From assembly GCA_002256985.1 (NCBI GenBank), contig NCGO01000017.1:1-57588 (forward strand): a stretch of 57,588 nt of DNA, read 5' to 3'. The position numbers and the translations under genes were made by a program. The notes under the pieces are model-generated. The model ran no database searches, was not told where the DNA came from, and was given only the letters and a program-made list of their open reading frames with translations. Of the stretch, positions 36,753 to 54,398 are shown piece after piece. Origin of the DNA: Novosphingobium sp. 28-62-57. Its GTDB lineage: Bacteria > Pseudomonadota > Alphaproteobacteria > Sphingomonadales > Sphingomonadaceae. Numbering within the stretch: position 1 is the first letter of the stretch; each line of letters begins with the position of its first letter.

Positions 36753-37010
36753 ATGCCCACTATCACCCTGCCAGCCCGATGCGACCGCGCTGCTACCACC
36801 GCTTTGCTGCCCGAATTTGTGGCCGCCATGGGCAACGAGGACCTGGAGATTGACGCCAGCCAGACCACGCTGGTGGGCTATGCCATGCTGCAATTGCTGG
36901 CGAGCGCGAAGAACAGCTTTGCGCGGCTGCGCATCACCCCATCCGAAGCCTTGCGCGATGCCGCGCAGCTGACGGGCCTGGAAATTCACCTGTTTGATGA
37001 GGTGGCATGA
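36753..37010 (+). CDS. STAS-domain protein of the chemotaxis operon
   Basis: The 85-residue single-domain STAS protein resembles MlaB/anti-sigma-antagonist folds (LEIDASQTTLVGYAMLQLL). In phospho-regulated SpoIIAA types a Ser follows Asp in the DSSG loop; here that loop is VGYAM, so phosphorylation at this point is unlikely. The start at 36753 (MPTITLPARC) has a GGAG ribosome site; an in-frame GTG/ATG lies 15-18 bp upstream. It overlaps cheA in ATGA. STAS genes in this place are common in alphaproteobacterial che clusters, but the role is unclear. Confidence 0.85.
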   Translation: MPTITLPARCDRAATTALLPEFVAAMGNEDLEIDASQTTLVGYAMLQLLASAKNSFARLRITPSEALRDAAQLTGLEIHLFDEVA

Positions 37011-39214: not shown

Positions 39215-40083
39215 ACCTGACCGCTGCCTTTGCTGACGGCTGCTTGCCGGGAGTCAGTCCGGATGTCTATTCGGACGCCGACTTTCGCGCAATTGCGGAC
39301 ATGATCTATGCCGAATCGGGCAATGTCCTGCCGCAGGGCAAGGCGATGCTTGTCTATTCGCGGATCGCTCCGCTGGTGCGCAAATCCGGCAAGCAGAGCT
39401 TTGCCGATTACATCGAATTGATTCGCAACGATCCCGATCTGCGCAAGAGCGCGGTGGATGCGCTGACCACCAATCACACCTTCTTCTTCCGCGAAGGGCA
39501 CCACTTCCGCCATTTTGCCGACCATGTCCGTCCGCACCTGGTGGAGCAACTGGAAGCCGGCGGGCGCGCGCGGCTGTGGTCGGCGGGCTGTTCCAGCGGG
39601 GAAGAAACATGGTCGCTGGTATTGACGCTGCTGGGCGAGGATCGCCCGCAAGGCCTGCGCCTGTTGAAACGCGATGTGGTGCTGCTGGCCAGCGATCTGG
39701 CCGCGCATGTGCTGCGCAAGGCCGAAGCTGCCGCTTATGCCGCATCTGAAATCCGGGATTTGCCGCCCAAGCTCCAAGCCAACTGGCTGAAAACGGCCGG
39801 TGACAGCTTGGTGGTGAACGATGAAGCGCGCGCCATCGTGCGCTTTCGCGAACTCAATCTGCTGGGCCCATGGCCGATGCGCCAGCAGTTCGATGTGATC
39901 TTCTGCCGCAATGTGATGATCTATTTCGACCTTGAGACCAAGGAACGCCTGGTGGAGCGCTTTGTCGAGCAACTCAAGCCGGGCGGCTATCTTTACATCG
40001 GGCACAGCGAGCGAGTTTCCGGGCCAGCGGTCGACCGGATTCAATGCGTCGGGCCAACAATTTACCGGAAGAGGGCGGCATGA
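39211..40083 (+). CDS. cheR: Chemotaxis receptor methyltransferase
   Basis: The 290-residue CheR has a helical N-terminal domain and a SAM-binding domain (ARLWSAGCSSGEETWSL, FDVIFCRNVMIYFD, GYLYIGHSE). It methylates glutamates of the receptor; the receptor encoded here ends in a probable tether for it. Its start and stop overlap neighbours in ATGA motifs. Confidence 0.97.
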   Translation: MNLTAAFADGCLPGVSPDVYSDADFRAIADMIYAESGNVLPQGKAMLVYSRIAPLVRKSGKQSFADYIELIRNDPDLRKSAVDALTTNHTFFFREGHHFRHFADHVRPHLVEQLEAGGRARLWSAGCSSGEETWSLVLTLLGEDRPQGLRLLKRDVVLLASDLAAHVLRKAEAAAYAASEIRDLPPKLQANWLKTAGDSLVVNDEARAIVRFRELNLLGPWPMRQQFDVIFCRNVMIYFDLETKERLVERFVEQLKPGGYLYIGHSERVSGPAVDRIQCVGPTIYRKRAA

Positions 40084-41105
40084 CGATACGGGTACTCATC
40101 ATCGACGATTCCGCCACCATGCGCGCCATCCTGATCTCGCGGCTGGCAACCGAGCCTGACATCACTGTTGTCGGCGCGGCGGGCAATGCTGCTGAAGGGC
40201 GGGCGATGATCAAGGAGCTCAATCCCGATGTGGTCACGCTCGACATCGAGATGCCGGGCATGAACGGGCTCGATTTCCTTGAGAAGATCATGACCTTGCG
40301 GCCCACGCCAGTGATCATCGTTTCAGGCGCAACGCAGCAGGGCAACGAGATGACCGCGCGTGCGCTCGCCCTGGGAGCCGTGGATTGCTATTCCAAGAGC
40401 GATCGCGCAGGTGGCTTGCCGCTGGATGACAATGGCAAACTGGCCAGCCTCGTTCGCCATGCCGCCAGAATGGGCTTTAGCGGCGGGCTGCCGCAGCCCA
40501 CGGTCACAGCGCATCGGGCGGCCGATACCGTGCCGTTTGATGTGCGGGCGATTGCGATTGGGTCATCGACCGGCGGGGTTGAGGCCTTGCAGATCCTGTT
40601 GCAGGATTTTCCGCGCGATTGCCCGCCCACGCTGATCGTCCAGCACGTCAACGCCCGCTTTGCTCCGGCCATTGCCCAAACGCTTGACCGGGTGTGCCCG
40701 GCCAAAGTGGTGATGGCTGACACCGACGTGCAATTGCAGCGCGGCACGGTCTACTTCGCCCCCGGCGGAGACCGGCACCTGATCGTGCGCGGCAATAGCC
40801 CTGCCTTCACCAAATTGCGGCAGGGTGATCCAGTGTCTGGCCACGTCCCCAGTGTGGACGTGCTGTTTCAATCGATGGCCGAAGCCTTTGCCGATCGCGC
40901 CGTAGGCATTCTGCTGACCGGCATGGGCAGCGATGGTGCCAATGGCCTGCTGGCCATGGCCGAACGCGGCGCTTTCACGATCGCGCAGGACGAGGCCAGT
41001 TGCGCCGTGTTCGGCATGCCGCGCGCCGCCATTGCACTGGGCGCGGCCCGCTTGGTTGCTCCGATCGAGCAGATCACCCGCCACGCATTTAGCAAGGCAG
41101 CCTGA
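40080..41105 (+). CDS. cheB: Chemotaxis response regulator methylesterase
   Basis: The 341-residue CheB has a receiver (D55 in TLDIEMPG) and a methylesterase domain with the full triad S163 (IGSSTGG), H189 (IVQHVNAR) and D285 (TGMGSDGA). It demethylates or deamidates the receptor. The contrast with the divergent paralogue at 33887-34915, which lacks the His, suggests the two differ in function. Its start overlaps the cheR stop in ATGA. Confidence 0.97.
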   Translation: MTIRVLIIDDSATMRAILISRLATEPDITVVGAAGNAAEGRAMIKELNPDVVTLDIEMPGMNGLDFLEKIMTLRPTPVIIVSGATQQGNEMTARALALGAVDCYSKSDRAGGLPLDDNGKLASLVRHAARMGFSGGLPQPTVTAHRAADTVPFDVRAIAIGSSTGGVEALQILLQDFPRDCPPTLIVQHVNARFAPAIAQTLDRVCPAKVVMADTDVQLQRGTVYFAPGGDRHLIVRGNSPAFTKLRQGDPVSGHVPSVDVLFQSMAEAFADRAVGILLTGMGSDGANGLLAMAERGAFTIAQDEASCAVFGMPRAAIALGAARLVAPIEQITRHAFSKAA

Positions 41106-41110
41106 CCGTC

Positions 41111-41665
41111 ATGGCTACGAACCTCATCCTTCCGGAAAAACCGATCAACCGCATCACCGTGATGCAAGGGCAAGCGCGGGTCAGCGCTGGTCCTCAGGTG
41201 GAATTCAACACCGTGCTGGGCAGCTGCGTGGCCACGTGCCTGTTCGATCCCGAAGTGGAGACAGGCGGCATGAACCATTTTCTGCTGGCTGAACCCCCAA
41301 AAAGCCACGGCCAGGTGAATGTTGATGAACATTACGGGGTCTATCTGATGGAAGTGCTGATCAACGAAATGCTGGCCAATGGTGCAGCCAAGCATCGCAT
41401 GCGCGCGCATCTTTATGGCGGGGCCAACATGCGCGCTGGCATGGCCAGGATCGGCACCATGAACGCCGATTTCGCTCGCCGCTTTCTGGAGCGTGAGCGG
41501 ATTCCGCTGGTCCGCGAGGATCTTGGCGGAAGCTCTGCCCGCCGCATCGAATTTCGCCCTGCCCACGGACAGGTCCGCTGCCGCACGGTGGCCAATACGA
41601 TGGTGCAGGAAACCCCGCCAACCCCGCACGTGCCACGCGGCGCGGGCGACGTTGAACTATTCTGA
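41111..41665 (+). CDS. cheD: Chemoreceptor glutamine deamidase
   Basis: The 184-residue CheD has the catalytic Cys in LGSCVATCLFDP (C39) and the His in GGMNHFLLAEP (H56), then LYGGANM. It deamidates receptor glutamines. It begins 5 bp after cheB and is typical of alphaproteobacterial che operons. Confidence 0.96.
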   Translation: MATNLILPEKPINRITVMQGQARVSAGPQVEFNTVLGSCVATCLFDPEVETGGMNHFLLAEPPKSHGQVNVDEHYGVYLMEVLINEMLANGAAKHRMRAHLYGGANMRAGMARIGTMNADFARRFLERERIPLVREDLGGSSARRIEFRPAHGQVRCRTVANTMVQETPPTPHVPRGAGDVELF

Positions 41666-41682
41666 AGAAAGTGAGCCGACCC

Positions 41683-42054
41683 ATGAGCAATGCTTTGCGA
41701 ATTCTGACAGTTGATGACAGCGCCAGCATGCGCGCGCTGCTGTTGCACGCCCTGAGCAGCCGGGGTTTTGATGTGGTACAGGCCGATGATGGCCAGGCCG
41801 CACTGCAATGGCTGGTGACCAACGATGTTGATGTCATCATCACCGACATCAACATGCCGCGGCTGGATGGCTTCGGCCTGATCGAACGCCTGCGATCGGG
41901 CGAGCGCCACTGCGACCGGCCGATTCTGGTGCTCTCGACCGAAAGTTCGGACGAGAAAAAGGCCCGCGCCCGCGCCGCAGGCGCCACCGGCTGGATCGTC
42001 AAACCATTTGATGCCGACAAACTGGTCGCCGCCGTGCGCCGCGTCGCTCACTGA
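41683..42054 (+). CDS. cheY: CheY-type response regulator
   Basis: The 123-residue single receiver domain has the acidic pair in TVDDSAS, phosphoryl Asp in IITDINMPRLDG, switch Thr/Ser in VLSTESS and Lys in IVKPFD. As the only stand-alone receiver in the operon it is the likely CheA output or phosphate sink. The ATG at 41683 is preferred; a GTG at 41671 is 12 bp upstream. Confidence 0.93.
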   Translation: MSNALRILTVDDSASMRALLLHALSSRGFDVVQADDGQAALQWLVTNDVDVIITDINMPRLDGFGLIERLRSGERHCDRPILVLSTESSDEKKARARAAGATGWIVKPFDADKLVAAVRRVAH

Positions 42055-42075
42055 TCGCCCGAAAAGGAACTGGAA

Positions 42076-42516
42076 ATGAAAGTGGAACTGATCGCTTTCG
42101 AAGCTGGCGGACAATTGTTCGGGCTCGACATCATGGCCGTGCGGGAAATCCGGGCATGGACCCCGGTCACACCGCTGCCGCAAGTGCCGCATTATGTGGC
42201 CGGCGTGGTCAATCTGCGCGGCGCAGTGCTGCCCGTGATCGATCTGGCTGCCCGGCTCGGCTGGCCTCCCACGCAAACCACACCGCGCCATGCGATCATC
42301 GTCATTCAGCTTGGCACGCAGACGATGGGGCTGATCGTCGATTCGGTCAGCGACATCGTGGCCCTGCCCGCTGATGCGCTGCAGCCCCCACCCAGTACCG
42401 GGCAGGATGATGTTGTGCAGTTCCTGCAAGGACTTGCTGCGCTGAGCGACCGCATGGTGATGGTGCTCGATCTGTCGCGCTTGGAAGCCACTGAAACCAT
42501 GGCGAATGCAGCGTGA
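42076..42516 (+). CDS. cheW: Chemotaxis coupling protein
   Basis: The 146-residue CheW-like protein links receptor and CheA. Signatures are FEAGGQLFGLDIMAVREI, VAGVVNLRGAVLPVIDLA and GLIVDSVSDIV. An AAAAGGAA ribosome site precedes it. Its stop overlaps the next gene (GTGA). Confidence 0.96.
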   Translation: MKVELIAFEAGGQLFGLDIMAVREIRAWTPVTPLPQVPHYVAGVVNLRGAVLPVIDLAARLGWPPTQTTPRHAIIVIQLGTQTMGLIVDSVSDIVALPADALQPPPSTGQDDVVQFLQGLAALSDRMVMVLDLSRLEATETMANAA

Positions 42517-43807: not shown

Positions 43808-45760
43808 TCAGGCGGCTTGTTCTGCGGTTTCCTTTGGCCTTGCGGTAAAGGTCAGGTCTTCGCGCTTTGCCTCGCGCGTCATCCGCCAGAACGCATCGTT
43901 GCGCCATGGCGTGATCGCCACCACGCGCCCGCGCGAATTGCGATACCAGTTGGTTGCGCCCGGATGTGTCCAGACCAGCTTTTCGTGCGCGGCATCGATC
44001 TTCGCCTTGTAATCAGCATAGACCTCCTCGCGCACTTCCACCGCATCCGCACCAGACTTCACCAATGCCTCGATCACCCGCACCGCATAGTTGGCCTGAT
44101 TTTCGATATTGCGGATCATGCTGCCACCGTGGCCGGAGCCGACATTGGGGCCAAGCAGGATGAAGAAGTTGGGAAAGCCCGGCACCAGCGTGCCGAGATA
44201 GGCGGCGGCATTGTCGCCCTCCCAGAACGCATGCAAATCGCGGCCATCACGCCCGACGACTTCGTAGGAGCCCAGCACATTTGCGGCCTGAAAGCCCGTG
44301 GCCAGAATCAGCACGTCGGCCTCGATTTCCTGCCCATCGCCTGCCACCAGAGTGTGATCGCGCACTTCGGACAGGCGCTGGGGCACCAGTTGCACATGGG
44401 GTTTACGCAAAGTGCGATACCAGCCGTTGTCCAGCAGCATGCGCTTGGCAAAAGGTGGGTAATCCGGCAGCACCAGTGGCAACAGATCCTGCCGCTCGCC
44501 CAGTTCCTCGCGCACATATTGCGTGAAAAACTCGCGGTGCCCGTCGTTGATCGCGTTTACCGCGCGCGCCGGTTCGGCCCACTCAGGATCGCGGAACAGG
44601 GTGCCATGCACCCGGTCGTTGAAGGTCCACGAAAGGCGCTGTTCCACCCATGCGCGATAGAGCGGCACGACCTGCATCAGATACCTGACGCCTGCTGGGA
44701 CCGGCTTTCTGAACTGCGGAAACGGCGCGGCCCACTGTTTGGAACGGGCGAACAGCGTCAACTCGGCCACATCGTCGGCAATCGCCGGGACCACCTGCAT
44801 CGCCGAAGCACCATTGCCAACCACGGCCACGCGCTTGCCTTTCAGGTCAAGGCCCTGCGGCCAGTCGCTGGTGTGCACAATCTGCCCGGCAAACCCGGAA
44901 AGCCCTTTGATATCAGGCACGACCGGCATGTTGAGAATGCCCACAGCGCTCATCACGATATCCGCGTGATGGACTTGCTGCGTGCCATCGGGCGCCTGCG
45001 CGGTCACTTCCCACTGGTTGCGGTCTGCCAGCCATTGGGCGCGTTCTACTTTGGTGCCAAAGCGCACGCGGTCATAAAGTCCGCTCGCCCGCGCGGTATC
45101 GAGCAGGTAATTCTCGATCTCGTCCCGCAGCGGGAAGAAGGCCGACCAATCGTTGGGGCGGAACGAGAAGGTGTAAGTCAGGTTCGGCGTATCGACCCCG
45201 CAACCCGGATAGCGGTTTTCCCACCATGTGCCGCCAAACTCGGTGTTCTTTTCAAAGATCACATGTTCGATGCCCATTTCGCGCAAACGCACGGCGGCCA
45301 CCATGCCGGAAATGCCCGCGCCAATGATGATCGCCCGCAAAGGCTTTGCCGGGCGCGCCGGTTCAACCACGGGATCAAGATGCATCGTGGCGGCAACGAT
45401 ATCGCCATATTCGGGCGGCACAGCCTCGGTCATGGCAACAGCCAGCATGGCGGCCAGATCCGCATTGGCCGGGCGTGGCAGGGCCGGTTCGCGGCCATCG
45501 ACCCAGGCAACGATCGCATCCCAAGCGGCGTTGCGGATCAGCGCCTGCACGTCCTCGGGCAGGCCACCGCTGTCATTGTCATCCAGTCCCTTGCCCCGGC
45601 TCGGCGCGAAAGGGGGCTCAAGATAGCGACGGTCTCCGGTCAGCTGGACCAGCACCATCAGCAGCGCAGGAATGTTCGCCTCGTCAACGCCCTGCCGCAA
45701 CAAGGCGCGATCAACGGCCTGTGGTGCAATCGGGCGGTCGGTAATCTTCAGAGCGTTCAT
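43808..45760 (-). CDS. Baeyer-Villiger monooxygenase with N-terminal extension
   Basis: The 650-residue flavoprotein has two Rossmann motifs, GAGISG (147-152) and GNGASA (315-320), around the BVMO fingerprint FAGQIVHTSDWP (290-301), which fits FxGxxxHxxxWP exactly. The roughly 140-residue N-terminal extension and total length resemble 4-hydroxyacetophenone-type BVMOs (about 640 residues). It would insert oxygen next to a ketone, giving an ester or lactone. The upstream esterase gene, TonB receptor and P450 suggest the breakdown of an aromatic or alicyclic ketone. The promoter has the shared palindrome at 45819-45838. Confidence 0.93.
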   Translation of the reverse strand: MNALKITDRPIAPQAVDRALLRQGVDEANIPALLMVLVQLTGDRRYLEPPFAPSRGKGLDDNDSGGLPEDVQALIRNAAWDAIVAWVDGREPALPRPANADLAAMLAVAMTEAVPPEYGDIVAATMHLDPVVEPARPAKPLRAIIIGAGISGMVAAVRLREMGIEHVIFEKNTEFGGTWWENRYPGCGVDTPNLTYTFSFRPNDWSAFFPLRDEIENYLLDTARASGLYDRVRFGTKVERAQWLADRNQWEVTAQAPDGTQQVHHADIVMSAVGILNMPVVPDIKGLSGFAGQIVHTSDWPQGLDLKGKRVAVVGNGASAMQVVPAIADDVAELTLFARSKQWAAPFPQFRKPVPAGVRYLMQVVPLYRAWVEQRLSWTFNDRVHGTLFRDPEWAEPARAVNAINDGHREFFTQYVREELGERQDLLPLVLPDYPPFAKRMLLDNGWYRTLRKPHVQLVPQRLSEVRDHTLVAGDGQEIEADVLILATGFQAANVLGSYEVVGRDGRDLHAFWEGDNAAAYLGTLVPGFPNFFILLGPNVGSGHGGSMIRNIENQANYAVRVIEALVKSGADAVEVREEVYADYKAKIDAAHEKLVWTHPGATNWYRNSRGRVVAITPWRNDAFWRMTREAKREDLTFTARPKETAEQAA

Positions 45761-45818
45761 GTCATTCCTTGTTGGCCCGGATCAGGCGTAACTGCCGGAT
45801 TATACCTGAAATAAGAAA

Positions 45819-45838
45819 TATCTACCCGATAGTATATC
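45819..45838 (-). promoter_or_regulatory. Operator/promoter of the BVMO gene (site 1 of shared palindrome)
   Basis: On the minus strand GATATAC-TATCGG-GTAGATA follows a -35 TTGACG (45845-45840) by 1 bp. The right arm contains TAGATA, a -10 candidate (15-bp spacing), with GATATT as the 17-bp alternative. It matches the sites at 47306-47325 and 54379-54398. A second TATAAT appears nearer the start. Confidence 0.7.
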
Positions 45839-45916
45839 ACGTCAACCGCCGACCGCAATCACCCTGTAACAGTCCGCGGCGGTGCCTGTTCCGGCGGGGC
45901 ATGGAAGCACTTCACC

Positions 45917-47137
45917 CTATCGCCAGGCGCCGCTCGCATCCGATGTCAGCCCGATTGCACGATAGGCCGCATCAATCAGCGTCTGGCCGCGCGCATTAAG
46001 CAGGATGCCCGCGCCCATGCGGTTCATCGTATAGCCAAAGCTCAGGCCTTGGGCCGGATCGGCAAAGCCGATGCTGCCGCCCATGCCGACATGGCCAAAG
46101 GCCGTCTCGCCCAAAATCAGGCTGTCCCCGCCCAAGGCACGATTGTCGGTGCTCATCATGAAACCCATGGCAAAGCGCATCGGCTGACACAGCACGGCAT
46201 CGCTATGCGTCGCCGCGCTAACCCTGCTCATGCGGTGAAAGGTATCGGCCGAAACCAGCCCGCCACCCTCGCCGTGGGCCAGTGGTGCGTACATTCCGGC
46301 GAGGCCGCGCGCGTTGGTAATGCCGTTGGCGCTGCCAATTTCTGCTGCATGAATCTCGCGCGAATTGAAGTCTGCCCCGCCAAGGTTCGTCAGGAACAAG
46401 TTGGGCAGGCTGCCGGGCTGCGTCGTTGCGGCGCGGAAGAAGGCCGAGGCGAAATTGACCTCCGCCGGATCGGGCGCGATCATCGGCGCAACGCGCGACT
46501 CCTCGCTCTCGGGCAGGCCAATATGGAAATCCAGCCCGAGCGGATCGGCCACGTGCTGCCGGAAGAACACGCCGAGCGGCATGCCGGAGATCAGCCGGAC
46601 CAACTGCCCCACCGTCCACGCATACGTCACGCCGTGATAGCCCTGCCGCGTCCCCGGCACCCAGTGCGCAGGCTCTGCCGCAACGCGCGCGGTCATATAG
46701 TCCCAGTCCGCCAATCCCCCACGTTTGATTGGCCCTGCCACATGCGGGACCGGCGATGTGTGGGCGAGCATCATGCCAACGGTCGTCGCTTCCTTGCCGC
46801 CCGCCGCAAATTCCGGCCAGATATCGGCAACCCGCGTTTCATATGTCACCCGCCCCTGATCAACCAGCATGTGCAGGCACAACGCGGTCGCTGCCTTGGT
46901 GCAGGAATAGACGATCGAGACGGTATCCTGCGTCCACGGCTGTGCTGTTTGCGGATCGGCAAGCCCGCCCCACAGGTCCACCACGGTGCGGCCCTGATGG
47001 GTGATACACAGGCTTGCGCCCACTTCCTTGCGCTCGGCAAAGTTGGCGCGAAAAGCCTCCAGCACCGTGGTGAATTCGGGCTCACAATGGCCGGAAATGG
47101 TCTGTTCACCCGGCAATTCAACCGAAATAGCGCTCAT
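45917..47137 (-). CDS. Serine hydrolase of the class C beta-lactamase family (esterase-like)
   Basis: The 406-residue protein has no signal peptide. Motifs are the SxxK nucleophile/base in IVYSCTKAATAL, the Tyr in GVTYAWTVGQL (YAW instead of YxN), and GHVGMGGS near the C-terminus in place of KTG. This pattern fits EstB-like esterases rather than true beta-lactamases. Next to a BVMO, it is a strong candidate for the hydrolase that opens the ester or lactone product. It is divergent from the TonB receptor gene across 230 bp. Confidence 0.9.
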   Translation of the reverse strand: MSAISVELPGEQTISGHCEPEFTTVLEAFRANFAERKEVGASLCITHQGRTVVDLWGGLADPQTAQPWTQDTVSIVYSCTKAATALCLHMLVDQGRVTYETRVADIWPEFAAGGKEATTVGMMLAHTSPVPHVAGPIKRGGLADWDYMTARVAAEPAHWVPGTRQGYHGVTYAWTVGQLVRLISGMPLGVFFRQHVADPLGLDFHIGLPESEESRVAPMIAPDPAEVNFASAFFRAATTQPGSLPNLFLTNLGGADFNSREIHAAEIGSANGITNARGLAGMYAPLAHGEGGGLVSADTFHRMSRVSAATHSDAVLCQPMRFAMGFMMSTDNRALGGDSLILGETAFGHVGMGGSIGFADPAQGLSFGYTMNRMGAGILLNARGQTLIDAAYRAIGLTSDASGAWR

Positions 47138-47305
47138 ATCAGGGGCATATCCTCTGCTTGGATGGTCTTGCCATCATTCTCTTTTCAACCACCCGACAGG
47201 GCAGAAGTGCGCAATCAAGCAGCACCACACCGCATGGGTCCAGATCAAACTGGGTCCCAACTGCTCCCCCCTGATTACCGCTTGCAATCTACTTAGCTTG
47301 TCAGG

Positions 47306-47325
47306 TATCTACGCACCAGTAGATA
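47306..47325 (+). promoter_or_regulatory. Operator/promoter of the TonB-receptor/P450 operon (site 2)
   Basis: TATCTAC-GCACCA-GTAGATA is a perfect 7-bp inverted repeat. It lies 2 bp after TTGTCA (47298-47303), a -35 box, and includes TAGATA (47320-47325) as the -10 with 16-bp spacing. Bound protein would block the promoter. Confidence 0.75.
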
Positions 47326-47367
47326 AAAATGCACGCAGTTTACACAGCGGCAAATAGGGGAGAGAAC

Positions 47368-49629
47368 ATGGTGCGCACGCAGTTTTCCGCGTTCGGGGCA
47401 ATCCGCATGAATTCGCTTGGGGCCACCCAGCACGTCACACGCTCCGCCGTGTTGGGCGTGCTGCTGTCCGGGGCTGCGCTCTTTGCATCTCCGGCAGCGG
47501 CGCAAGAAGCCGCGCCCCCGGCCGAGGGCCTCACCGATATCGTTGTCACCGCCACGCGTAGCTCGGAATCGCTCTCCAAAGTCGCCGCATCGGTTTCTGC
47601 CGTGTCCGAAGCTGCACTTGGCGTTGGCGGGGTAAAGGACGTTGCTTCGCTGGCCACGGCCATCCCCAACCTTTCGGTGGGTGACCAGTTCGGCGTAAAC
47701 CGCATCTTCATCCGCGGCATCGGCCTTACCAGCATCGACCTTGGCGCAGATGGCGGCGTGGCATTTTTGCAGGACGGCGCGCAGATTGCCCGTCCAGCGG
47801 CACAGCTTTCAGGCTTCTACGATCTGGAGCGTGTCGAAGTGCTGCGCGGACCGCAAGGCACCCTCTATGGCCGCAGCGCCACCGCTGGCGCAATCAACCT
47901 CATCACCAAGCGCCCGACCGAGGAACTGGAAGGCTACGTCCGCGCCAGCTATGGCAATTACAATGCCGTCGCGCTCGAAGGGGCTGTTGGCGGGGCGTTG
48001 AGCGGCGACCAGTTGATGGTCCGCATCGCCGGCAAGTATGACCGGCGCGATGGCTATGGCATCAACGAATTCACCGGCCAGGATATCGACGACCGCAATG
48101 CCTATGCATTACGTGGCAGCATTCTGGCCAAGCCCGCCGATGACCTCGAAATCCTCGTCTCTGGCGAGTATTTCAAGGAAGACGACAGCAACTATGCGTT
48201 CCACTATTTCGGCCCGACCGTGCAGCCGGAGAACGCACTGGGTTCGCTGATCGGCGGCCAATCGCTCTTCACCGTGGCCGCCGCCGCTGGCCGCCAGCCC
48301 AATTTGCGCAACATCTATTCCGATCAGGAAGCACTCAACCAGCGTGACGGTTACAGCGTTACCGGCACCATCGCATGGACGCCGGGCGATTGGGACATCA
48401 AATCGATCACCTCGTATCGCAACTTCGAACGCTTCAACCGCAACGACCTCGATGGCTCGAACGCCAACATGTTCGGCCAGAACAACTACAACGAAACGAG
48501 CAAGACCTTCAGCCAGGAATTCGTCGCCACCTACCGCAGCGAAAAGTTCGATGCACTGCTGGGTGCGATGTATTTCAACGAAGAGCTGTTCGGCAGTGTG
48601 CGCGTACCGCTGACCAATCTTGGCATCCTGTTCGGCGTGCCAGCCAACACGTTTGACGGTGCCAACTATCTGCAGTTCGGCACGGTCAACATCGATGCCA
48701 TCGGCGTCTATGCGCAAGGCAGCTACGCGGTCACCGACAAGCTGAAAATCACCGCTGGTGGCCGCTTCAGCTATGAAAAGCGTAAAGGCGTGGGCACCTT
48801 TGATTTCCTTGGCAGCGTCAACACCGACAAGGCCAAGAGCTGGAATGCCTTCACCCCCACCGTCACGCTCAACTATCAGGCCAGCGACTCCACGCTGGTC
48901 TATGCCTCGGTCACGCGCGGGTTCAAATCGGGCGTGATCAACGTTGGATCGCGCAACGATGTGATCAACCCGGAATACGTCTGGAGCTACGAAGTCGGCC
49001 TGAAGACCACAACCGCCGACCGCAAGCTGCAGGCCAATATCGCCGGGTTCTATATGGACTACACCGATCTTCAGGTCGGCTTCGTGGATGCCACCAGCGT
49101 TGTCACCACGGTCAACGCCGCCTCGGCGCGCAACTATGGCATCGAAGCGGAACTGCGCGCAAAGCCGGTGCCAGGCCTCACGCTGGAGCTGTTCGGCACG
49201 TACCTCAACGCCAAGTACAGCCAGTTCACGACCGGCGATTATCGGCGCGCGTTTCAGCAAATCAGCGTCGCAGGCAACCGCCTGTCAAACGCGCCGGAAT
49301 TCTCGTTCCGTGCTGGCGCCAATTACGACATTCCGGTCGGCTCGGCAGGTACACTGAATGCGCGCGCCGAAGTGAATTGGCAGGACCGCGTGTTCTTCAC
49401 CGAGTTCAACAACGCTGATGCCACGCAGGCACCCTATGCGCTGATCAATGCAGGGCTGCGCTTCACCACGGCGGACGAGAAGTTCACCGTCGATGTCTGG
49501 GGCCGCAACCTCGCCAACAAGCTGGTGATCACCAACAACATCATCACCGCACCGCTGTTCAACAGCGTGCGCGTCGGCTCGCTCGCCCCGCCGCGCACCT
49601 TTGGCGTGACCGTCGGGGTCAACTTCTAA
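47368..49629 (+). CDS. TonB-dependent outer-membrane receptor
   Basis: The 753-residue protein has a signal peptide (AALFASPAAAQ), TonB box (DIVVTATR), plug (SVSAVSEAAL, VEVLRGPQGTLYGRSATAGAIN) and a 22-strand barrel ending in VTVGVNF. Receptors of this sphingomonad type take up hydrophobic or bulky carbon sources as well as iron complexes. Co-location with the P450/BVMO genes favours uptake of the pathway substrate. The ATG at 47368 has a GGGGAGAG ribosome site. It is followed 17 bp later by the P450 gene. Confidence 0.95.
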   Translation: MVRTQFSAFGAIRMNSLGATQHVTRSAVLGVLLSGAALFASPAAAQEAAPPAEGLTDIVVTATRSSESLSKVAASVSAVSEAALGVGGVKDVASLATAIPNLSVGDQFGVNRIFIRGIGLTSIDLGADGGVAFLQDGAQIARPAAQLSGFYDLERVEVLRGPQGTLYGRSATAGAINLITKRPTEELEGYVRASYGNYNAVALEGAVGGALSGDQLMVRIAGKYDRRDGYGINEFTGQDIDDRNAYALRGSILAKPADDLEILVSGEYFKEDDSNYAFHYFGPTVQPENALGSLIGGQSLFTVAAAAGRQPNLRNIYSDQEALNQRDGYSVTGTIAWTPGDWDIKSITSYRNFERFNRNDLDGSNANMFGQNNYNETSKTFSQEFVATYRSEKFDALLGAMYFNEELFGSVRVPLTNLGILFGVPANTFDGANYLQFGTVNIDAIGVYAQGSYAVTDKLKITAGGRFSYEKRKGVGTFDFLGSVNTDKAKSWNAFTPTVTLNYQASDSTLVYASVTRGFKSGVINVGSRNDVINPEYVWSYEVGLKTTTADRKLQANIAGFYMDYTDLQVGFVDATSVVTTVNAASARNYGIEAELRAKPVPGLTLELFGTYLNAKYSQFTTGDYRRAFQQISVAGNRLSNAPEFSFRAGANYDIPVGSAGTLNARAEVNWQDRVFFTEFNNADATQAPYALINAGLRFTTADEKFTVDVWGRNLANKLVITNNIITAPLFNSVRVGSLAPPRTFGVTVGVNF

Positions 49630-49646
49630 GGGAAGGAGCTTCGGAC

Positions 49647-50879
49647 ATGGCGCAAGGCCTGCTTTTCGATCTGACGGACCCGCGGCTCAAGCAGGATCCC
49701 TATCCGATCTTCAAGGCCCTGCGCGATGCCGAACCGATGCATTTCTCGCAGCTCGGGTTCTGGGTGGCAACCCGCTATGCCGATGTTCGTGCGGTCCTGA
49801 TGGATCGCACGAATTTCGGGCAGGGGGATTTCCTTTCGAACATCCGCCTGTTCTATGGGCCGGATTTCGATGTGCTGTCGCATTCGGCCTATCGCTGGCT
49901 GTCTGAAATCTTCCTCTATCAGGACCCGCCGCGCCATACCCGTGTGCGCGGCCTCGTCACGCAAGCGCTGACCGCGCGCCGCGTGATCGAAATGCGCCCG
50001 CGCGTGCAGGCCATTGCCGACCGGCTGCTCAATGCCGTGGCGGACGCGGGCCAGATGGAACTGATCCACCAGTTCGCCTACCGCTTCCCCACGCTGGTGA
50101 TGTGCGACATGCTAGGTCTCTCACCCGAGGAAGCCTCGGACGAGGTGCTCGCCGCGCTCAACCAGGCCATCTCGGATTCGTTTGTGGTGTTTGAAATGCG
50201 GGCCTTTTCCGATGCAGAACTGGGCCTTGCCAACCGGCAGATGGATTTCCTGATGGACTTCTTCGGCGCCGTCTTTGCTGAACGCCGCCGCGCCCCGCGC
50301 GATGATTTGGCCACCGCACTGTGCAATGCGCGCGATGAACACGGCCCGCTTAGCGATCACGAAATGGCGACCGTCGCCATCGGCCTGTTCGGCGCCGGGT
50401 TCGAGACGACCGCGCACATGATCGGCAACGGCCTGCTCAGCCTCGCCAAGTTTCCCGAGCAGTGGGCCAAGCTCGTCGCCAATCCAGACCTTGCTGAATC
50501 CGCGACCGAAGAAATCCTGCGCTATGAAAGCTCGCTCGTCGGCACCAACCGCACGGCCTTTAGCGATACCGAAGTGGGCGGCAAGATCGTGCGCGCGGGC
50601 GAACGCGTGCTGACGCTGGTGGCCGCGGGCAACCGCGATCCGGCGGTGTTCGATGCGCCTGACCGCTTCGATATCGAACGCAAAGGTCCCAAGCACCTCT
50701 CGTTTGGCGGCGGCATCCACTTCTGCGTAGGCGCAGAGCTGGCGCGGCTCGAAGGCGAAATCGCGCTCAAATCACTGATTACCCGCTTTCCGGCGCTGAC
50801 GGTCGATGTCGCCAGTGCGCAATGGCGGCAAGAAGGCTTCATGTTCCGCGGCCTGTCGAAGCTCGACGTCAGCTGGTAA
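49647..50879 (+). CDS. Cytochrome P450
   Basis: The 410-residue soluble bacterial P450 has the I-helix GAGFETT (249-255), the K-helix ExxR (EILR, 289-292) and the haem ligand C360 in FGGGIHFCVGAELA. It needs redox partners not found in this window. It would hydroxylate the substrate brought in by the adjacent TonB receptor. An AAGGAG site gives tight coupling to that gene. Its TAA abuts the stop codon of the opposing acyl-CoA ligase with no gap. Confidence 0.96.
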   Translation: MAQGLLFDLTDPRLKQDPYPIFKALRDAEPMHFSQLGFWVATRYADVRAVLMDRTNFGQGDFLSNIRLFYGPDFDVLSHSAYRWLSEIFLYQDPPRHTRVRGLVTQALTARRVIEMRPRVQAIADRLLNAVADAGQMELIHQFAYRFPTLVMCDMLGLSPEEASDEVLAALNQAISDSFVVFEMRAFSDAELGLANRQMDFLMDFFGAVFAERRRAPRDDLATALCNARDEHGPLSDHEMATVAIGLFGAGFETTAHMIGNGLLSLAKFPEQWAKLVANPDLAESATEEILRYESSLVGTNRTAFSDTEVGGKIVRAGERVLTLVAAGNRDPAVFDAPDRFDIERKGPKHLSFGGGIHFCVGAELARLEGEIALKSLITRFPALTVDVASAQWRQEGFMFRGLSKLDVSW

Positions 50880-52511
50880 TCACAGCTTTTCCTTCTTCAG
50901 CCGCATCCCGGCCTTCTCGCGGTCCCATGTATCGGGCGTGATCCCCTCGGCGCGCAGTTCTGCCTTCATCACTTTGGCGGTCGGCGTTTTGGGCAGTTCG
51001 GGCAGGATGCGGATATAGCGCGGCACCATGAAATAGGGCATCCGCGCCGCGAGGAACTCAGACAGTGAAACCGGATCGATGCTTGCCCCCGGAACCGGAG
51101 CGATCACCGCCATGACTTCGTCTTCGGAATACTCGCTCGGCACGCCGATCACCGCCGCCTCCCGCACGTCCGGGTGCGCGGTCACATCGCTTTCCACCTC
51201 GAACGACGAGATGTTTTCGCCCCGCCTGCGGATGGCATCCTTCACCCGGTCGACGAAGTAGAAATAGCCGTCCGCATCGCGGCGAAAGGCATCGCCAGTG
51301 TGGAACCAGCCATTGCGCCAGGCGCGCGCGGTGGCTTCGGGGTTCTTGTGATAGCCGTGGTTCATCGCCCAGGGCCGGTCGGTACGCACGATCATCTCGC
51401 CCACCATGCCCACCGGAACCTCGCAATCGTTGGCATCCACAAGCCGCACATCGGCTCCGCTGCGCACCTTACCGCAGGTGCCCAGCTTCACCGGATTGGG
51501 CTCGGAGACAATGGGCGAGGAAATCTCGGTCATGTTGAAGATGGTATAGACGTCGATCCCGAACCGCTCGTGAAACGGCCCCGCCGCCTCGGTCAGCGGC
51601 ACCATGAAGGCCTTGCGCACACCATGACCCCGGTCTTCCGGCCCCGGTGGACGCTTGATCAGGAACGTGGCCATCACGCCCAGCAGGAAGATCGTGGTGC
51701 ATCCGGTGCGCTTTACGAAGTCCCAGAACGTGTCGGTCGAGAAATTCTCCATCAACGCGATGGACCCACCGCGCGCCAGCATCACGAAGGGAATGCCAAG
51801 GCCGCCGATATGGAACACCGGCATGTTGACCAGAAACCGGTCCTCACCGCCCACAAAATGCCAGCTTTCCGGCCCGGCATTGGTGTAAAGGTGCAAGTAG
51901 GACGACAGCACACCCTTTGATGGCCCCGTGGTGCCCGAGGTATAGATGATCGATTGCGTGTCCCACGGCTCAATCGGGCTGGCAAGCGGGGCAAGCTCGG
52001 CCTCCTCACCGCTCACCGAATCAAAGGCATGCACCGCAAAGCGTGCAGGTGCCGAGCCTTCGCCCAGTGTGATGATGGTCTCCACCGCCGCCGTATCGAT
52101 CCCTTCCAACCGATCGAGCAGCCCGCCGTGCGCAACCAGCAATCGGGCATCCGAATTGGCCAGCACATGTTCCAGGATCGTGCCGCGATAGGCTGTGTTG
52201 AACGGCACGAACACGCCGCCAAGGTAATTGATCGCATAGAACGTGATCAGCGCCTCGCGCCCGTTGGGCAGCCACACCGCCACATGATCGCCGCGCTTTA
52301 CGCCCAGCTTTTGCAACCCTGCCGCCTTGCGCACCACCAGATCGCGCAAGGCCGCATAAGTCCACTGCCCGCCATCCTCGAACACGGCATAGATCGCGTT
52401 TGGCTGCGAGGCGGCAAAATCATCGATCAGATAGCGCAGCACGCATTTGCGCCGATCCAGCACGCGCGGGTCGGTATGCGCTGCAACCTCAGGCGTGGCA
52501 TTTTCAGGCAT
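50880..52511 (-). CDS. AMP-dependent acyl-CoA synthetase
   Basis: The 543-residue ANL-family ligase has the ATP-binding IIYTSGTTGPSKGVLSS, VYTIFNMTEISSPI and GWFHTGDAFRRDADGYFYFVDR, and the catalytic Lys near the C-terminus in KTPTAKVMKAEL. It most resembles CaiC/crotonobetaine-type CoA ligases. In this cluster it would activate the carboxylic acid released by the esterase. It overlaps the tetR stop by 8 bp, as part of an operon starting with the Fe-ADH gene. Confidence 0.92.
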   Translation of the reverse strand: MPENATPEVAAHTDPRVLDRRKCVLRYLIDDFAASQPNAIYAVFEDGGQWTYAALRDLVVRKAAGLQKLGVKRGDHVAVWLPNGREALITFYAINYLGGVFVPFNTAYRGTILEHVLANSDARLLVAHGGLLDRLEGIDTAAVETIITLGEGSAPARFAVHAFDSVSGEEAELAPLASPIEPWDTQSIIYTSGTTGPSKGVLSSYLHLYTNAGPESWHFVGGEDRFLVNMPVFHIGGLGIPFVMLARGGSIALMENFSTDTFWDFVKRTGCTTIFLLGVMATFLIKRPPGPEDRGHGVRKAFMVPLTEAAGPFHERFGIDVYTIFNMTEISSPIVSEPNPVKLGTCGKVRSGADVRLVDANDCEVPVGMVGEMIVRTDRPWAMNHGYHKNPEATARAWRNGWFHTGDAFRRDADGYFYFVDRVKDAIRRRGENISSFEVESDVTAHPDVREAAVIGVPSEYSEDEVMAVIAPVPGASIDPVSLSEFLAARMPYFMVPRYIRILPELPKTPTAKVMKAELRAEGITPDTWDREKAGMRLKKEKL

Positions 52512-53178
52512 TCGGGCCTCCTGCTGGCTGCACCATCTTCTGCACCATCGTGATCGCGTCCATCACCACTTCGGTGGCCGACCAGCGCCCGCCTTCATGA
52601 TACCACAGCGCAATCCAGCTCAGCAGGCCGCTCACCCAGATCGCTGTGCGCGAAGGTGCCGCCACATCAAATTCCCCGCTGCGCTTGCCCTTTTCCAGCA
52701 GCGCCGCCAGCTTGGTATCGAAGGTGTGGCGCAAATCGCGGATGCGGCGTGCGTCATCGGGCGTCAGGCTCTTTTCCTCGCGCAGATAGACCGTCACATA
52801 GCGCTGGTTTTCGATGATGATCCGCGCCACGCGCTCCACCACGATCTTCAGCTGCTCGGTCGCCGTGCCTTCCACGGCCAAGGCCTCTTCCAGCGCGGTC
52901 AGCGAAAGCTGAATGCCGGTCTGGCAGATCTCGTACAGCAGCTCACCCTTGTTCTTGTAGTACGAGTAGATGAACGGCTTGGTGACATTGAGCTGTTCGG
53001 CCACCGAATCCAGTGTGGTCGCCTCATAGCCATTGGCGAAGAAGAAGTGGCTTGCCTCCTCCAGAATGCGGCGGCGCTTGTAGGCCGTGATTTCACCCTT
53101 CAACTGCGCCGCAGCGCGCTTCTTCTTCGGCTTGTCTGTCATGTCTGCTGCATAGACGTTTTCGGCCAGTTTGTGCAT
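52504..53178 (-). CDS. TetR-family transcriptional regulator
   Basis: The product of about 224 residues has a canonical TetR HTH at the N-terminus (FANGYEATTLDSVAEQLNV, KPFIYSYYKNKGELLYEI) and a helical ligand-binding domain. It lies inside a catabolic operon and overlaps both neighbours, so its expression follows the pathway. The shared palindromes before the Fe-ADH, BVMO and TonB genes are likely its operators (inference). A GTG at 53181 and an ATG at 53139-53142 (MTDKPKKKR) are alternative starts. Confidence 0.93.
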   Translation of the reverse strand: MHKLAENVYAADMTDKPKKKRAAAQLKGEITAYKRRRILEEASHFFFANGYEATTLDSVAEQLNVTKPFIYSYYKNKGELLYEICQTGIQLSLTALEEALAVEGTATEQLKIVVERVARIIIENQRYVTVYLREEKSLTPDDARRIRDLRHTFDTKLAALLEKGKRSGEFDVAAPSRTAIWVSGLLSWIALWYHEGGRWSATEVVMDAITMVQKMVQPAGGPNA

Positions 53179-54356
53179 CACCCCATCGCGGTCCGCAGAA
53201 TTTCCATGACGTCGGCGGCCGTCTTGATCGTGCGGGGATTGGTGCGGCCCCAGATATCTTCCAGCGTATATTCCGAGATCAACTGCAGCTGGTCTTCACG
53301 CACGCCCACTTCGCGCAGTGAGCGCGGCATGCCGAGCCCCCGGATCAGCGCATCGAGCAGTTCCGAAGCCGGACGCGACGCATCGCCCAGACACGCGCTG
53401 ATGCGCTTCTGCCGCTCGGCATTCACCGAGAGGTTGAACGCCTGCACGAACGGCGACATTACGCAGCTGGTGTGGCCATGCGGCACGTCGCATGTGCCGC
53501 CCAGCACGTGGCCGATGGCGTGGCTGGCCCCCATCGGCACGCCGCCGATGATCGGGATCATCGATTGCCACGCACCAATCTGGCACTTCAACCGCGCATC
53601 AAGGTCGGTCGGGTCGGCCTTCACCGCCGGGAGCCCCGCTGCCAGCAAGCGCAGCGCGCTGTCGGCAATGCCATCACAAAAATCGTTGGACAGGAACGAG
53701 GCCAGCGTTTCAGTCGCGTGATCGACCGAACGCACGCCGGTGGAAAGCCACAGCCATTCGGGCGTATGCACCGTGATTGCAGGATCGAGCACAACGCAAA
53801 CCGGCACCATCTCGCGCTGCGTATAGGCCTGCTTGAGCTTGATTGCCTCGTCCGTCGCGCCCGAAAGCGGATTGAACTCGCCGCCTGAAAGCGTGGTGGG
53901 CACGCAAATTGCGCGCACATCCGGCCCGGCGAATTCTGGGATCACCATGTTGCCATCACCGTCCACCTGCACGCGATAGCTGTCGAACTGCTCGATGGTG
54001 GTGATGTTATGCTTCAGGCAGATCAGCACGATCTTGCCCGCATCGGTCACCGATCCACCGCCAACGGTCACCACCAGATCCGCACCCGCAGCACGGGCAG
54101 CGTTCGCCGCTGCCAACACATCACTGCGCGGGGCATGAGGCTGAATGCCATCATGCGTGGCGGCATGGCGCGCGCCCAGTGCCGCCTCGATCCGGCGAAT
54201 CTCGTCAGTCTGGCGGTTGAGGAAGCTGCTTGCCAGAATAAACACCCGGCTCGCCCCGCGCGCCGCCGCTTCTTGCGCCACCGCTTCGGCTGCTGGAATG
54301 CCAAGCGTTACCCGCTCGGTTGCCGTGAGGATGACCTGTGAGGCCGTTACCATCAT
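53178..54356 (-). CDS. Iron-containing alcohol dehydrogenase family protein
   Basis: The product of about 392 residues belongs to the group III metal-dependent ADH/maleylacetate reductase family. The dinucleotide site is VVTVGGGSVTDAGK. Metal ligands are suggested by HATETLASF, ASHAIGHVLGGTCDVPHGHTS. It may oxidise the alcohol released by ester cleavage or act on a ring-cleavage product; the sequence does not decide. ATGs at 54356 and 54353 follow a GGGAGA site. It opens the operon ADH-tetR-CoA ligase, with palindrome site 3 just upstream. Confidence 0.9.
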   Translation of the reverse strand: MMVTASQVILTATERVTLGIPAAEAVAQEAAARGASRVFILASSFLNRQTDEIRRIEAALGARHAATHDGIQPHAPRSDVLAAANAARAAGADLVVTVGGGSVTDAGKIVLICLKHNITTIEQFDSYRVQVDGDGNMVIPEFAGPDVRAICVPTTLSGGEFNPLSGATDEAIKLKQAYTQREMVPVCVVLDPAITVHTPEWLWLSTGVRSVDHATETLASFLSNDFCDGIADSALRLLAAGLPAVKADPTDLDARLKCQIGAWQSMIPIIGGVPMGASHAIGHVLGGTCDVPHGHTSCVMSPFVQAFNLSVNAERQKRISACLGDASRPASELLDALIRGLGMPRSLREVGVREDQLQLISEYTLEDIWGRTNPRTIKTAADVMEILRTAMG

Positions 54357-54378
54357 CGCTCTCCCATTGTTTGATTTG

Positions 54379-54398
54379 GTTATACTGATAAGTAGCAT
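54379..54398 (-). promoter_or_regulatory. Operator/promoter of the ADH-tetR-ligase operon (site 3)
   Basis: On the plus strand GTTATAC-TGATAA-GTAGCAT, matching sites 1 and 2 in 7-6-7 layout. On the minus strand TTGACC (54416-54411) is the -35, and ACTTAT (54393-54388) is a -10 at 17-bp spacing, inside the palindrome. This site would let the TetR protein control its own operon. Confidence 0.68.

What the first reader, a model, noticed from the sequence alone, without database searches (positions are those of the whole stretch)
45819..54398. Three promoters of a P450/BVMO catabolic island share a 20-bp palindrome, defining a probable TetR regulon
Sites at 45819-45838, 47306-47325 and 54379-54398 all have 7-bp arms and a 6-bp spacer. 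In one orientation they read GATATAC-N6-GTAGATA, TATCTAC-N6-GTAGATA and GTTATAC-N6-GTAGCAT, consensus TAC-N6-GTAGATA. Each begins within 1-13 bp of a TTGACG/TTGTCA/TTGACC -35 box and overlaps the -10. They precede the BVMO gene, the TonB-receptor/P450 operon, and the ADH-tetR-ligase operon. The only TetR gene in the window lies inside the last, so it is the natural candidate to bind them and respond to a pathway metabolite.
Basis: partly seen in the sequence, partly recalled or inferred. Interest (0 to 1): 0.8.

Follow-up and report, generated by a model that had tools for sequence, protein, structure and literature searches.

The report
TetR operator regulon of catabolic cluster
Three promoters of a bacterial gene cluster that looks built to take up and break down some organic compound share one small DNA switch, conserved together with its likely repressor protein in dozens of related bacteria, so the cluster is very probably turned on as one unit.

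Summary
The finding holds and is now better supported. The sites are at the stated coordinates; their common core is TAC-N6-GTA, and only the 47306 site is a perfect 7-bp repeat (7, 5 and 4 of 7 pairs). TAC-N6-GTA is the only one of 960 3-bp dyads present in all three intergenic regions. A weight matrix from relatives alone scores the sites 20.7-23.3; the next place in the window scores 7.4, and 100 simulated windows reach at most 12.7. The refined pattern occurs at five places in the genome, three of them here. In alphaproteobacterial relatives the core is in 36 of 37 ADH promoters (next dyad 16); in other proteobacterial relatives only 5 of 31. In the family, 21 of 21 genomes with both genes carry the site at the ADH gene, 0 of 2 without the TetR orthologue. 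Corrections: the -35 box proposed at 47306 is poorly conserved (3 of 24); conserved boxes put the operator over the -10 at two promoters and between -35 and -10 at the third. Binding, inducer and substrate are untested; an acyl-CoA from the operon's own ligase is my best guess. An ordinary kind of system; this cluster turned up in none of my paper searches.

The parts
45819..45838 (-). Operator 1 (GATATAC-TATCGG-GTAGATA in gene orientation), between -35 TTGACG and the -10 of the BVMO-ZnADH operon
   Evidence: (matrix score 23.3), 50, 52: TTGAC at the same offset in L073 (2 of 16 promoters, window counted in)
45799..45818 (-). Degenerate second copy abutting operator 1 (TTA-N6-GTA, 20 bp away); possible second dimer site
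   Evidence: (score 4.65), 52: GTA at +20 in 15 of 16 BVMO promoters, many of them divergent BVMO/TBDR regions
47306..47325 (+). Operator 2 (perfect inverted repeat TATCTAC-N6-GTAGATA) over the -10 of the TBDR-P450 operon
   Evidence: (score 20.7)
47282..47287 (+). Conserved -35-like TTGCAA of the TBDR promoter, 18 bp before TATCTA
   Evidence: TTG at this offset in 20 of 24
47286..47305 (+). Stretch abutting operator 2 with a half-site TAC (47290-47292) exactly 20 bp upstream of the operator's TAC
   Evidence: TAC at -20 in 16 of 24 TBDR promoters
54379..54398 (-). Operator 3 (ATGCTAC-TTATCA-GTATAAC in gene orientation) over the -10/start of the FeADH-TetR-ligase operon
   Evidence: (score 23.0), 34, 47, 50, 52: TTGAC at -22 in 32 of 37
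52504..53142 (-). TetR-type regulator (TetR_N + TetR_C_24), the candidate repressor; may start at GTG 53181
53178..54356 (-). Iron-containing alcohol dehydrogenase (FeADH), first gene of the operon
50880..52511 (-). Acyl-CoA ligase (AMP-binding), last gene of the operon
47329..49629 (+). TonB-dependent receptor (ORF as listed; the true start may be the ATG at 47368)
49647..50879 (+). Cytochrome P450
43808..45760 (-). Baeyer-Villiger-type flavin monooxygenase, 650 aa
42796..43791 (-). Zinc-type/quinone-reductase-like dehydrogenase, probably cotranscribed with the BVMO (16-bp gap)
45917..47137 (-). Beta-lactamase-fold esterase (LipL-like), divergent from TBDR; no operator of its own, membership of the regulon open

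Best explanation
The 20-bp sites are operators of the TetR-type protein encoded at 52504-53142. A dimer bound at each site covers the -10 region (TBDR-P450 and FeADH-TetR-ligase promoters) or lies between -35 and -10 (BVMO-ZnADH promoter), so RNA polymerase is kept off and uptake, oxidation and CoA activation stay off together; the TetR gene represses itself through operator 3. A pathway metabolite releases the protein. Most likely this is an acyl-CoA formed by the ligase in the same operon, because the fold is near PfmR, AibR (isovaleryl-CoA) and KstR2 (CoA esters). Shown here: a conserved shared operator, its place at operon starts, and that it goes with the TetR gene. Inferred: binding, dimer, repression rather than activation, and the inducer.
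For: Only shared dyad of 960 in the three intergenic regions. Matrix from 57 sites of relatives, window left out: 23.3, 23.0, 20.7 against 7.4 for the next place and 12.7 for the best of 100 simulated windows. Dyad enumeration in 20 related loci: TAC-N6-GTA first of 960 in TBDR (17 of 18) and FeADH promoters (14 of 17), third in BVMO (10 of 17), 0 of 18 LIG, 0 of 12 P450. In 42 loci taken as alphaproteobacterial: FeADH 36 of 37, TBDR 22 of 31, BVMO 17 of 25, LIG 0 of 39. Same layout and three sites in L074, Novosphingobium sp. AAP83. Own genome: 5 places, control 24. 21 of 21 FeADH genes in genomes with a TetR orthologue have the site, 0 of 2 without. L053 (38% TetR relative, no cluster) has one TAC-N6-GTA, in no called promoter. 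Structure model pLDDT 93.5; Foldseek ranks PfmR 3vpr first, AibR 5k7h 10th, KstR2 4w97 13th.
Against: No binding or expression data. Loci were fetched by the TetR protein, so its presence beside the motif is by construction; the independent FeADH search gives only two genomes without the TetR orthologue, and there FeADH follows closely on an upstream reading frame, so it may have no promoter of its own. Non-alphaproteobacterial relatives with FeADH-TetR-LIG mostly lack TAC-N6-GTA (FeADH 5 of 31); I drew that split after seeing the sites, and over both sets together it is 41 of 68. Nine of 31 TBDR and 8 of 25 BVMO promoters in the alphaproteobacterial set had no site in my stretch. One good match (C12:39106, score 19.2) lies near an IS66 remnant and a YgjV gene, not a catabolic gene. 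DarR, which binds c-di-AMP, ranks above AibR and KstR2 in the fold search. Many relatives are close kin, so counts are not independent events.
Confidence: 0.87

Rival explanations
1. The sites are real operators but bound by another regulator encoded elsewhere; the TetR gene in the cluster has another role.
For: 18 other TetR-type genes score above cut-off in the genome; no binding data.
Against: The local TetR gene is kept with the motif in many genera, itself often behind or beside a site; the two FeADH loci of genomes without it lack the motif. Other regulators of those genomes were not surveyed.
Confidence: 0.08
2. The TetR protein binds the sites but activates, or only modulates, some promoters (for example by bending or by two abutting dimers), so the three units are not simply co-repressed.
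For: Operator position differs: between -35 and -10 at BVMO, over the -10 at the others; a degenerate second copy or half-site lies exactly 20 bp away at two promoters.
Against: All positions overlap the polymerase footprint, the usual repressor geometry (general knowledge); named structural kin such as KstR2 are repressors.
Confidence: 0.1
3. The shared pattern is a promoter feature (variant -10 TATCTA/TATAC) or a chance likeness of A+T-rich promoters, not an operator.
For: The arms overlap the -10; the intergenic regions are A+T-richer than the window (51-57% GC against 62.6%).
Against: Core and symmetry are kept while the distance to the -35 changes (-11, -22, -28); LIG and P450 upstream regions lack it; 5 places in 4.1 Mb.
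Confidence: 0.02

Closest known systems
EdcR of Caenibius tardaugens (oestradiol cluster repressor), PMC8700777, passages seen
   Same: TetR-type local repressor of a sphingomonad cluster with a P450 gene (the edcT gene as a TonB receptor is recalled); proposed palindrome TnnCnnTACnAnTnGTAnnGnnA has TAC and GTA half-cores and overlaps the -10; released by a pathway compound (oestradiol, oestrone)
   Different: Half-cores 5 bp apart instead of 6; C-terminal domain TetR_C_11 (PF16859) there, TetR_C_24 (PF17932) here; different enzymes; inducer there is not a CoA ester
PfmR (TTHB023) of Thermus thermophilus, PMC7022988, passages seen
   Same: Best sequence and fold match in the PDB (3vpr, about 30% identity); named for phenylacetic and fatty acid metabolism; palindromic operator, also before its own gene
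   Different: Other operator consensus; no P450/BVMO/TonB cluster described in the passages; low identity
KstR2 of mycobacteria (repressor of late cholesterol genes)
   Same: Foldseek match 4w97; similar helix motif (KstR2-2 consensus AVAIYQREMHHL in PMC13176608, passages; VYLREEKSL here, VYQREMKxL in relatives); effector HIP-CoA (PMC8700777, passages); pairing with a CoA ligase gene is recalled
   Different: 18% identity; its operator was not compared here; different pathway genes
AibR (isovaleryl-CoA), PDB 5k7h/5k7z
   Same: Fold; structure title names a CoA-ester effector and operator DNA
   Different: 22% identity; its pathway was not compared

Membership tests
TetR family of regulators | N-terminal TetR_N helix-turn-helix | tested here: met
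   PF00440, E 1.5e-10, 41.1 bits over cut-off 24
TetR family of regulators | All-helical C-terminal ligand/dimer domain | tested here: met
   PF17932 TetR_C_24 E 8.1e-28; model of nine helices, pLDDT 93.5
TetR family of regulators | Binds a palindromic operator as dimer, released by ligand | not testable with these tools
   Operator inferred from conservation only
Local catabolic TetR regulon | Shared operator at the operon starts of one cluster including the regulator's own operon | tested here: met
Local catabolic TetR regulon | Operator conserved with the regulator across genomes | tested here: met
   36 of 37 FeADH promoters in alphaproteobacterial loci, 5 of 31 in other loci; 21 of 21 against 0 of 2
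EdcR orthologues | TAC-N5-GTA operator and TetR_C_11 domain | tested here: not met
   TAC-N6-GTA and TetR_C_24
KstR orthologues | NCBIfam equivalog score | tested here: not met
   NF033703 KstR 34.9 bits against cut-off 280; none of the 16 models listed for this protein reached its cut-off
Acyl-CoA-responsive TetR regulators | Binds a CoA ester | not testable with these tools
   Fold neighbours only

The most novel reading that the evidence does not exclude
An undescribed alphaproteobacterial regulon in which a PfmR/KstR2-like TetR protein senses the CoA ester made by the ligase of its own operon, represses import, P450, Baeyer-Villiger oxidation, alcohol oxidation and CoA activation together through TAC-N6-GTA operators (sometimes paired 20 or about 65 bp apart), and lets operator-carrying modules such as two different BVMO types be swapped into the same circuit.
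Probability: 0.45. Interest if true: 0.55.

Novelty: new member of a known kind. Interest (0 to 1): 0.4.

Why it matters
It gives a concrete, testable regulon for a widespread catabolic cluster whose substrate I could not assign: the operator lets one look for co-regulated genes in related genomes, and the TetR protein is a ready sensor for finding the substrate. It also adds a 6-bp-spaced relative to the 5-bp EdcR-type operator in sphingomonads.

Tried and rejected
Palindromy alone as evidence was rejected: 11 perfect 7-bp repeats with 6-bp spacer occur in the window, 10 of them elsewhere. The TTGTCA -35 at site 2 was set aside in favour of TTGCAA. Chance or plain promoter likeness was rejected. 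Pathway identity led nowhere: family searches, PDB searches and paper searches gave no described cluster of this make-up that I recognised in the listings. PheR (PMC13273656, passages) is an IclR-type protein with another motif. PMC5343134 was seen only in a search listing. Orthology with EdcR was considered and rejected (domain and spacer differ). A tree of 51 TetR proteins clusters the motif label (5 changes; shuffled mean 15.9), but three 'none' rows (L136, L138, L139) are artefacts of my promoter rule: one search shows sites there; clustering of near kin is expected anyway.
Full report
What is in the sequence. The three 20-bp sites are at the coordinates given. In gene orientation they are GATATAC-TATCGG-GTAGATA before the BVMO gene, TATCTAC-GCACCA-GTAGATA before the TonB receptor gene (TBDR), and ATGCTAC-TTATCA-GTATAAC before the FeADH gene. 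Only the second is a perfect 7-bp inverted repeat; the others pair at 5 and 4 of 7 positions. What they share is TAC-N6-GTA, which occurs three times in the 57,588-base window, each time here. In the three intergenic regions (156, 191 and 331 bp) it is the only one of 960 dyads (64 triplets, spacers 0-14) found in all three; in 300 first-order simulations a spacer-6 dyad of any sequence was shared in 1%.

Genes. Pfam and NCBIfam searches give a Baeyer-Villiger-type flavin monooxygenase with a zinc-type dehydrogenase behind it, a beta-lactamase-fold esterase, a TonB-dependent receptor with a P450 behind it, and a run of iron-type alcohol dehydrogenase, TetR regulator (TetR_N, TetR_C_24) and acyl-CoA ligase. 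Each of the three runs starts at one site. The esterase (start 47137) has no site of its own and is divergent from the TonB receptor; whether it is in the regulon is open.

Relatives, first set. The TetR protein was searched in 397 genomes of the family: 48 have a match at E <= 1e-20. Stretches around 20 of the best other loci (19.9-20 kb each, 9.2 kb for one) were fetched; 18 of the 20 carry most of the same genes in shuffled order, L051 has a different set and L053 lacks the cluster. Promoter stretches were taken around genes above an identity floor. TAC-N6-GTA ranks first of 960 dyads before TBDR (17 of 18) and FeADH (14 of 17), third before BVMO (10 of 17), 21st before TetR (7 of 17); esterase 1 of 2; ligase 0 of 18, P450 0 of 12, zinc dehydrogenase 0 of 7. 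Of 77 copies in these loci 58 fall in the promoter stretches, which make up 38,353 of 387,420 bases.

A symmetrised weight matrix was made from 57 such sites, without the window. It scores the window sites 23.3, 23.0 and 20.7; the next place scores 7.4; 100 second-order simulated windows reached 12.7 at most.

Relatives, second set. After seeing the sites I split them by title and TetR similarity into 42 loci taken as alphaproteobacterial, 32 other, mostly gammaproteobacterial ones, and 6 without FeADH that I left out (L125, L129, L130, L131, L133, L134). In the first group: FeADH 36 of 37, TBDR 22 of 31, BVMO 17 of 25, TetR 6 of 42, ligase 0 of 39; next best dyad for FeADH 16 of 37. In the second: FeADH 5 of 31, TBDR 3 of 17. 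L074 (Novosphingobium sp. AAP83) has the window's layout and all three sites.

Link to the TetR gene. Searching the same 397 genomes with FeADH instead gives 23 at E <= 1e-100. In 21 of them one search shows a TetR match at E <= 1.4e-42 (in G277 on another contig), and all 21 have the site before FeADH; the two others (G114, L152, 67% FeADH; G093, L163, 51%) have none. In both, FeADH follows closely on an upstream reading frame, so the contrast is weak. Two further genomes have such a TetR match without FeADH: G253 (L051), where the motif stands before another BVMO and receptor, and G299 (L053), where no called promoter has it. BVMO relatives (19 of 397 genomes): 11 have a site upstream, one (L182) is cut off at its start, and the 7 without are those where BVMO follows FeADH-LIG. 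Sites thus mark operon starts. The genome has 19 TetR genes above cut-off, one in this window, and nothing closer than 26% to this TetR.

Whole genome. The pattern WNHTACBNNNNVGTADNW occurs at five places, the reversed control at 24. Three are the window sites. C2:29109 scores 4.8 and lies between genes that read by eye as sugar-nucleotide genes; C12:39106 scores 19.2 and lies about 100 bp before a YgjV-type gene next to IS66 pieces. So few other hits, but not near related genes.

Promoter geometry. Counting the window in, TTGAC stands 22 bp before the core in 32 of 37 FeADH promoters, so the operator covers the -10 and start. At the BVMO, TTGAC 11 bp before the core is shared with L073 only (2 of 16), so the operator lies between -35 and -10 there. 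A half-site exactly 20 bp away recurs: TAC at -20 in 16 of 24 TBDR promoters, GTA at +20 in 15 of 16 BVMO promoters; many of these are one divergent region seen from both sides, but the window has one at each of two separate promoters.

Mechanism. Most likely the TetR dimer sits on the three operators, blocks polymerase, represses its own operon as well, and leaves on binding a metabolite. An alignment of 51 sequences gave a model with mean pLDDT 93.5. Foldseek puts PfmR first, DarR (c-di-AMP) 9th, AibR with isovaleryl-CoA 10th and KstR2 13th, so fold kinship alone does not settle the ligand. With a CoA ligase in the same operon, a CoA ester is my first guess; this is inference.

Known relatives. 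EdcR of Caenibius tardaugens is the nearest in kind: TetR repressor of a sphingomonad P450 cluster with a proposed TAC-N5-GTA palindrome over the -10 (PMC8700777, passages). Spacer and C-terminal domain differ. PfmR's consensus (PMC7022988, passages) differs. Paper searches did not bring up this cluster or regulon in what I saw of their listings; the library holds only open-licence papers.

Verdict. Observation confirmed with small corrections; interpretation supported; a new member of a known kind.

Noticed in passing
upstream of FeADH in L096-L102, L109, L111 (GTAA-N7-TTAC); L095, L105, L112, L115-L117, L121, L123, L124, L126, L128, L135 (TAC-N7-GTA): Non-alphaproteobacterial relatives with FeADH-TetR-ligase mostly lack TAC-N6-GTA but have other dyads before FeADH: GTAA-N7-TTAC in 9 of 31 and TAC-N7-GTA in 12 of 31, as if the operator had changed spacing or order with the TetR lineage.
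   Followed up: partly
L039, L048, L049, L050, L052, L054, L153, L162: FeADH promoters with two operators about 61-67 bp apart; the window has one.
   Followed up: no
L051:9737-19901: A 44% TetR relative with a different gene set (42% BVMO, 28% TonB receptor, an ORF with flavin monooxygenase and hydrolase domains) carries the same motif before the receptor and the BVMO.
   Followed up: no
43808-45760; L055, L073, L074; L062, L063, L065, L067, L070-L072: Two BVMO types occupy the regulon: the window's type (89-91% in L055, L073, L074) and one only about 40-42% alike beside the TonB receptor in loci whose TetR is closest to the window's.
   Followed up: partly
own genome C12:39106-39123 (L057:1501-1520): A good operator match (score 19.2) about 100 bp before a YgjV-type membrane protein gene, next to IS66 transposase pieces; chance or an odd fourth target.
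   Followed up: partly
37007-42516: A run of genes that reads by eye as a chemotaxis operon (CheA, CheR, CheB, CheD, CheY, CheW-like; not tested) lies directly beside the catabolic cluster.
   Followed up: no
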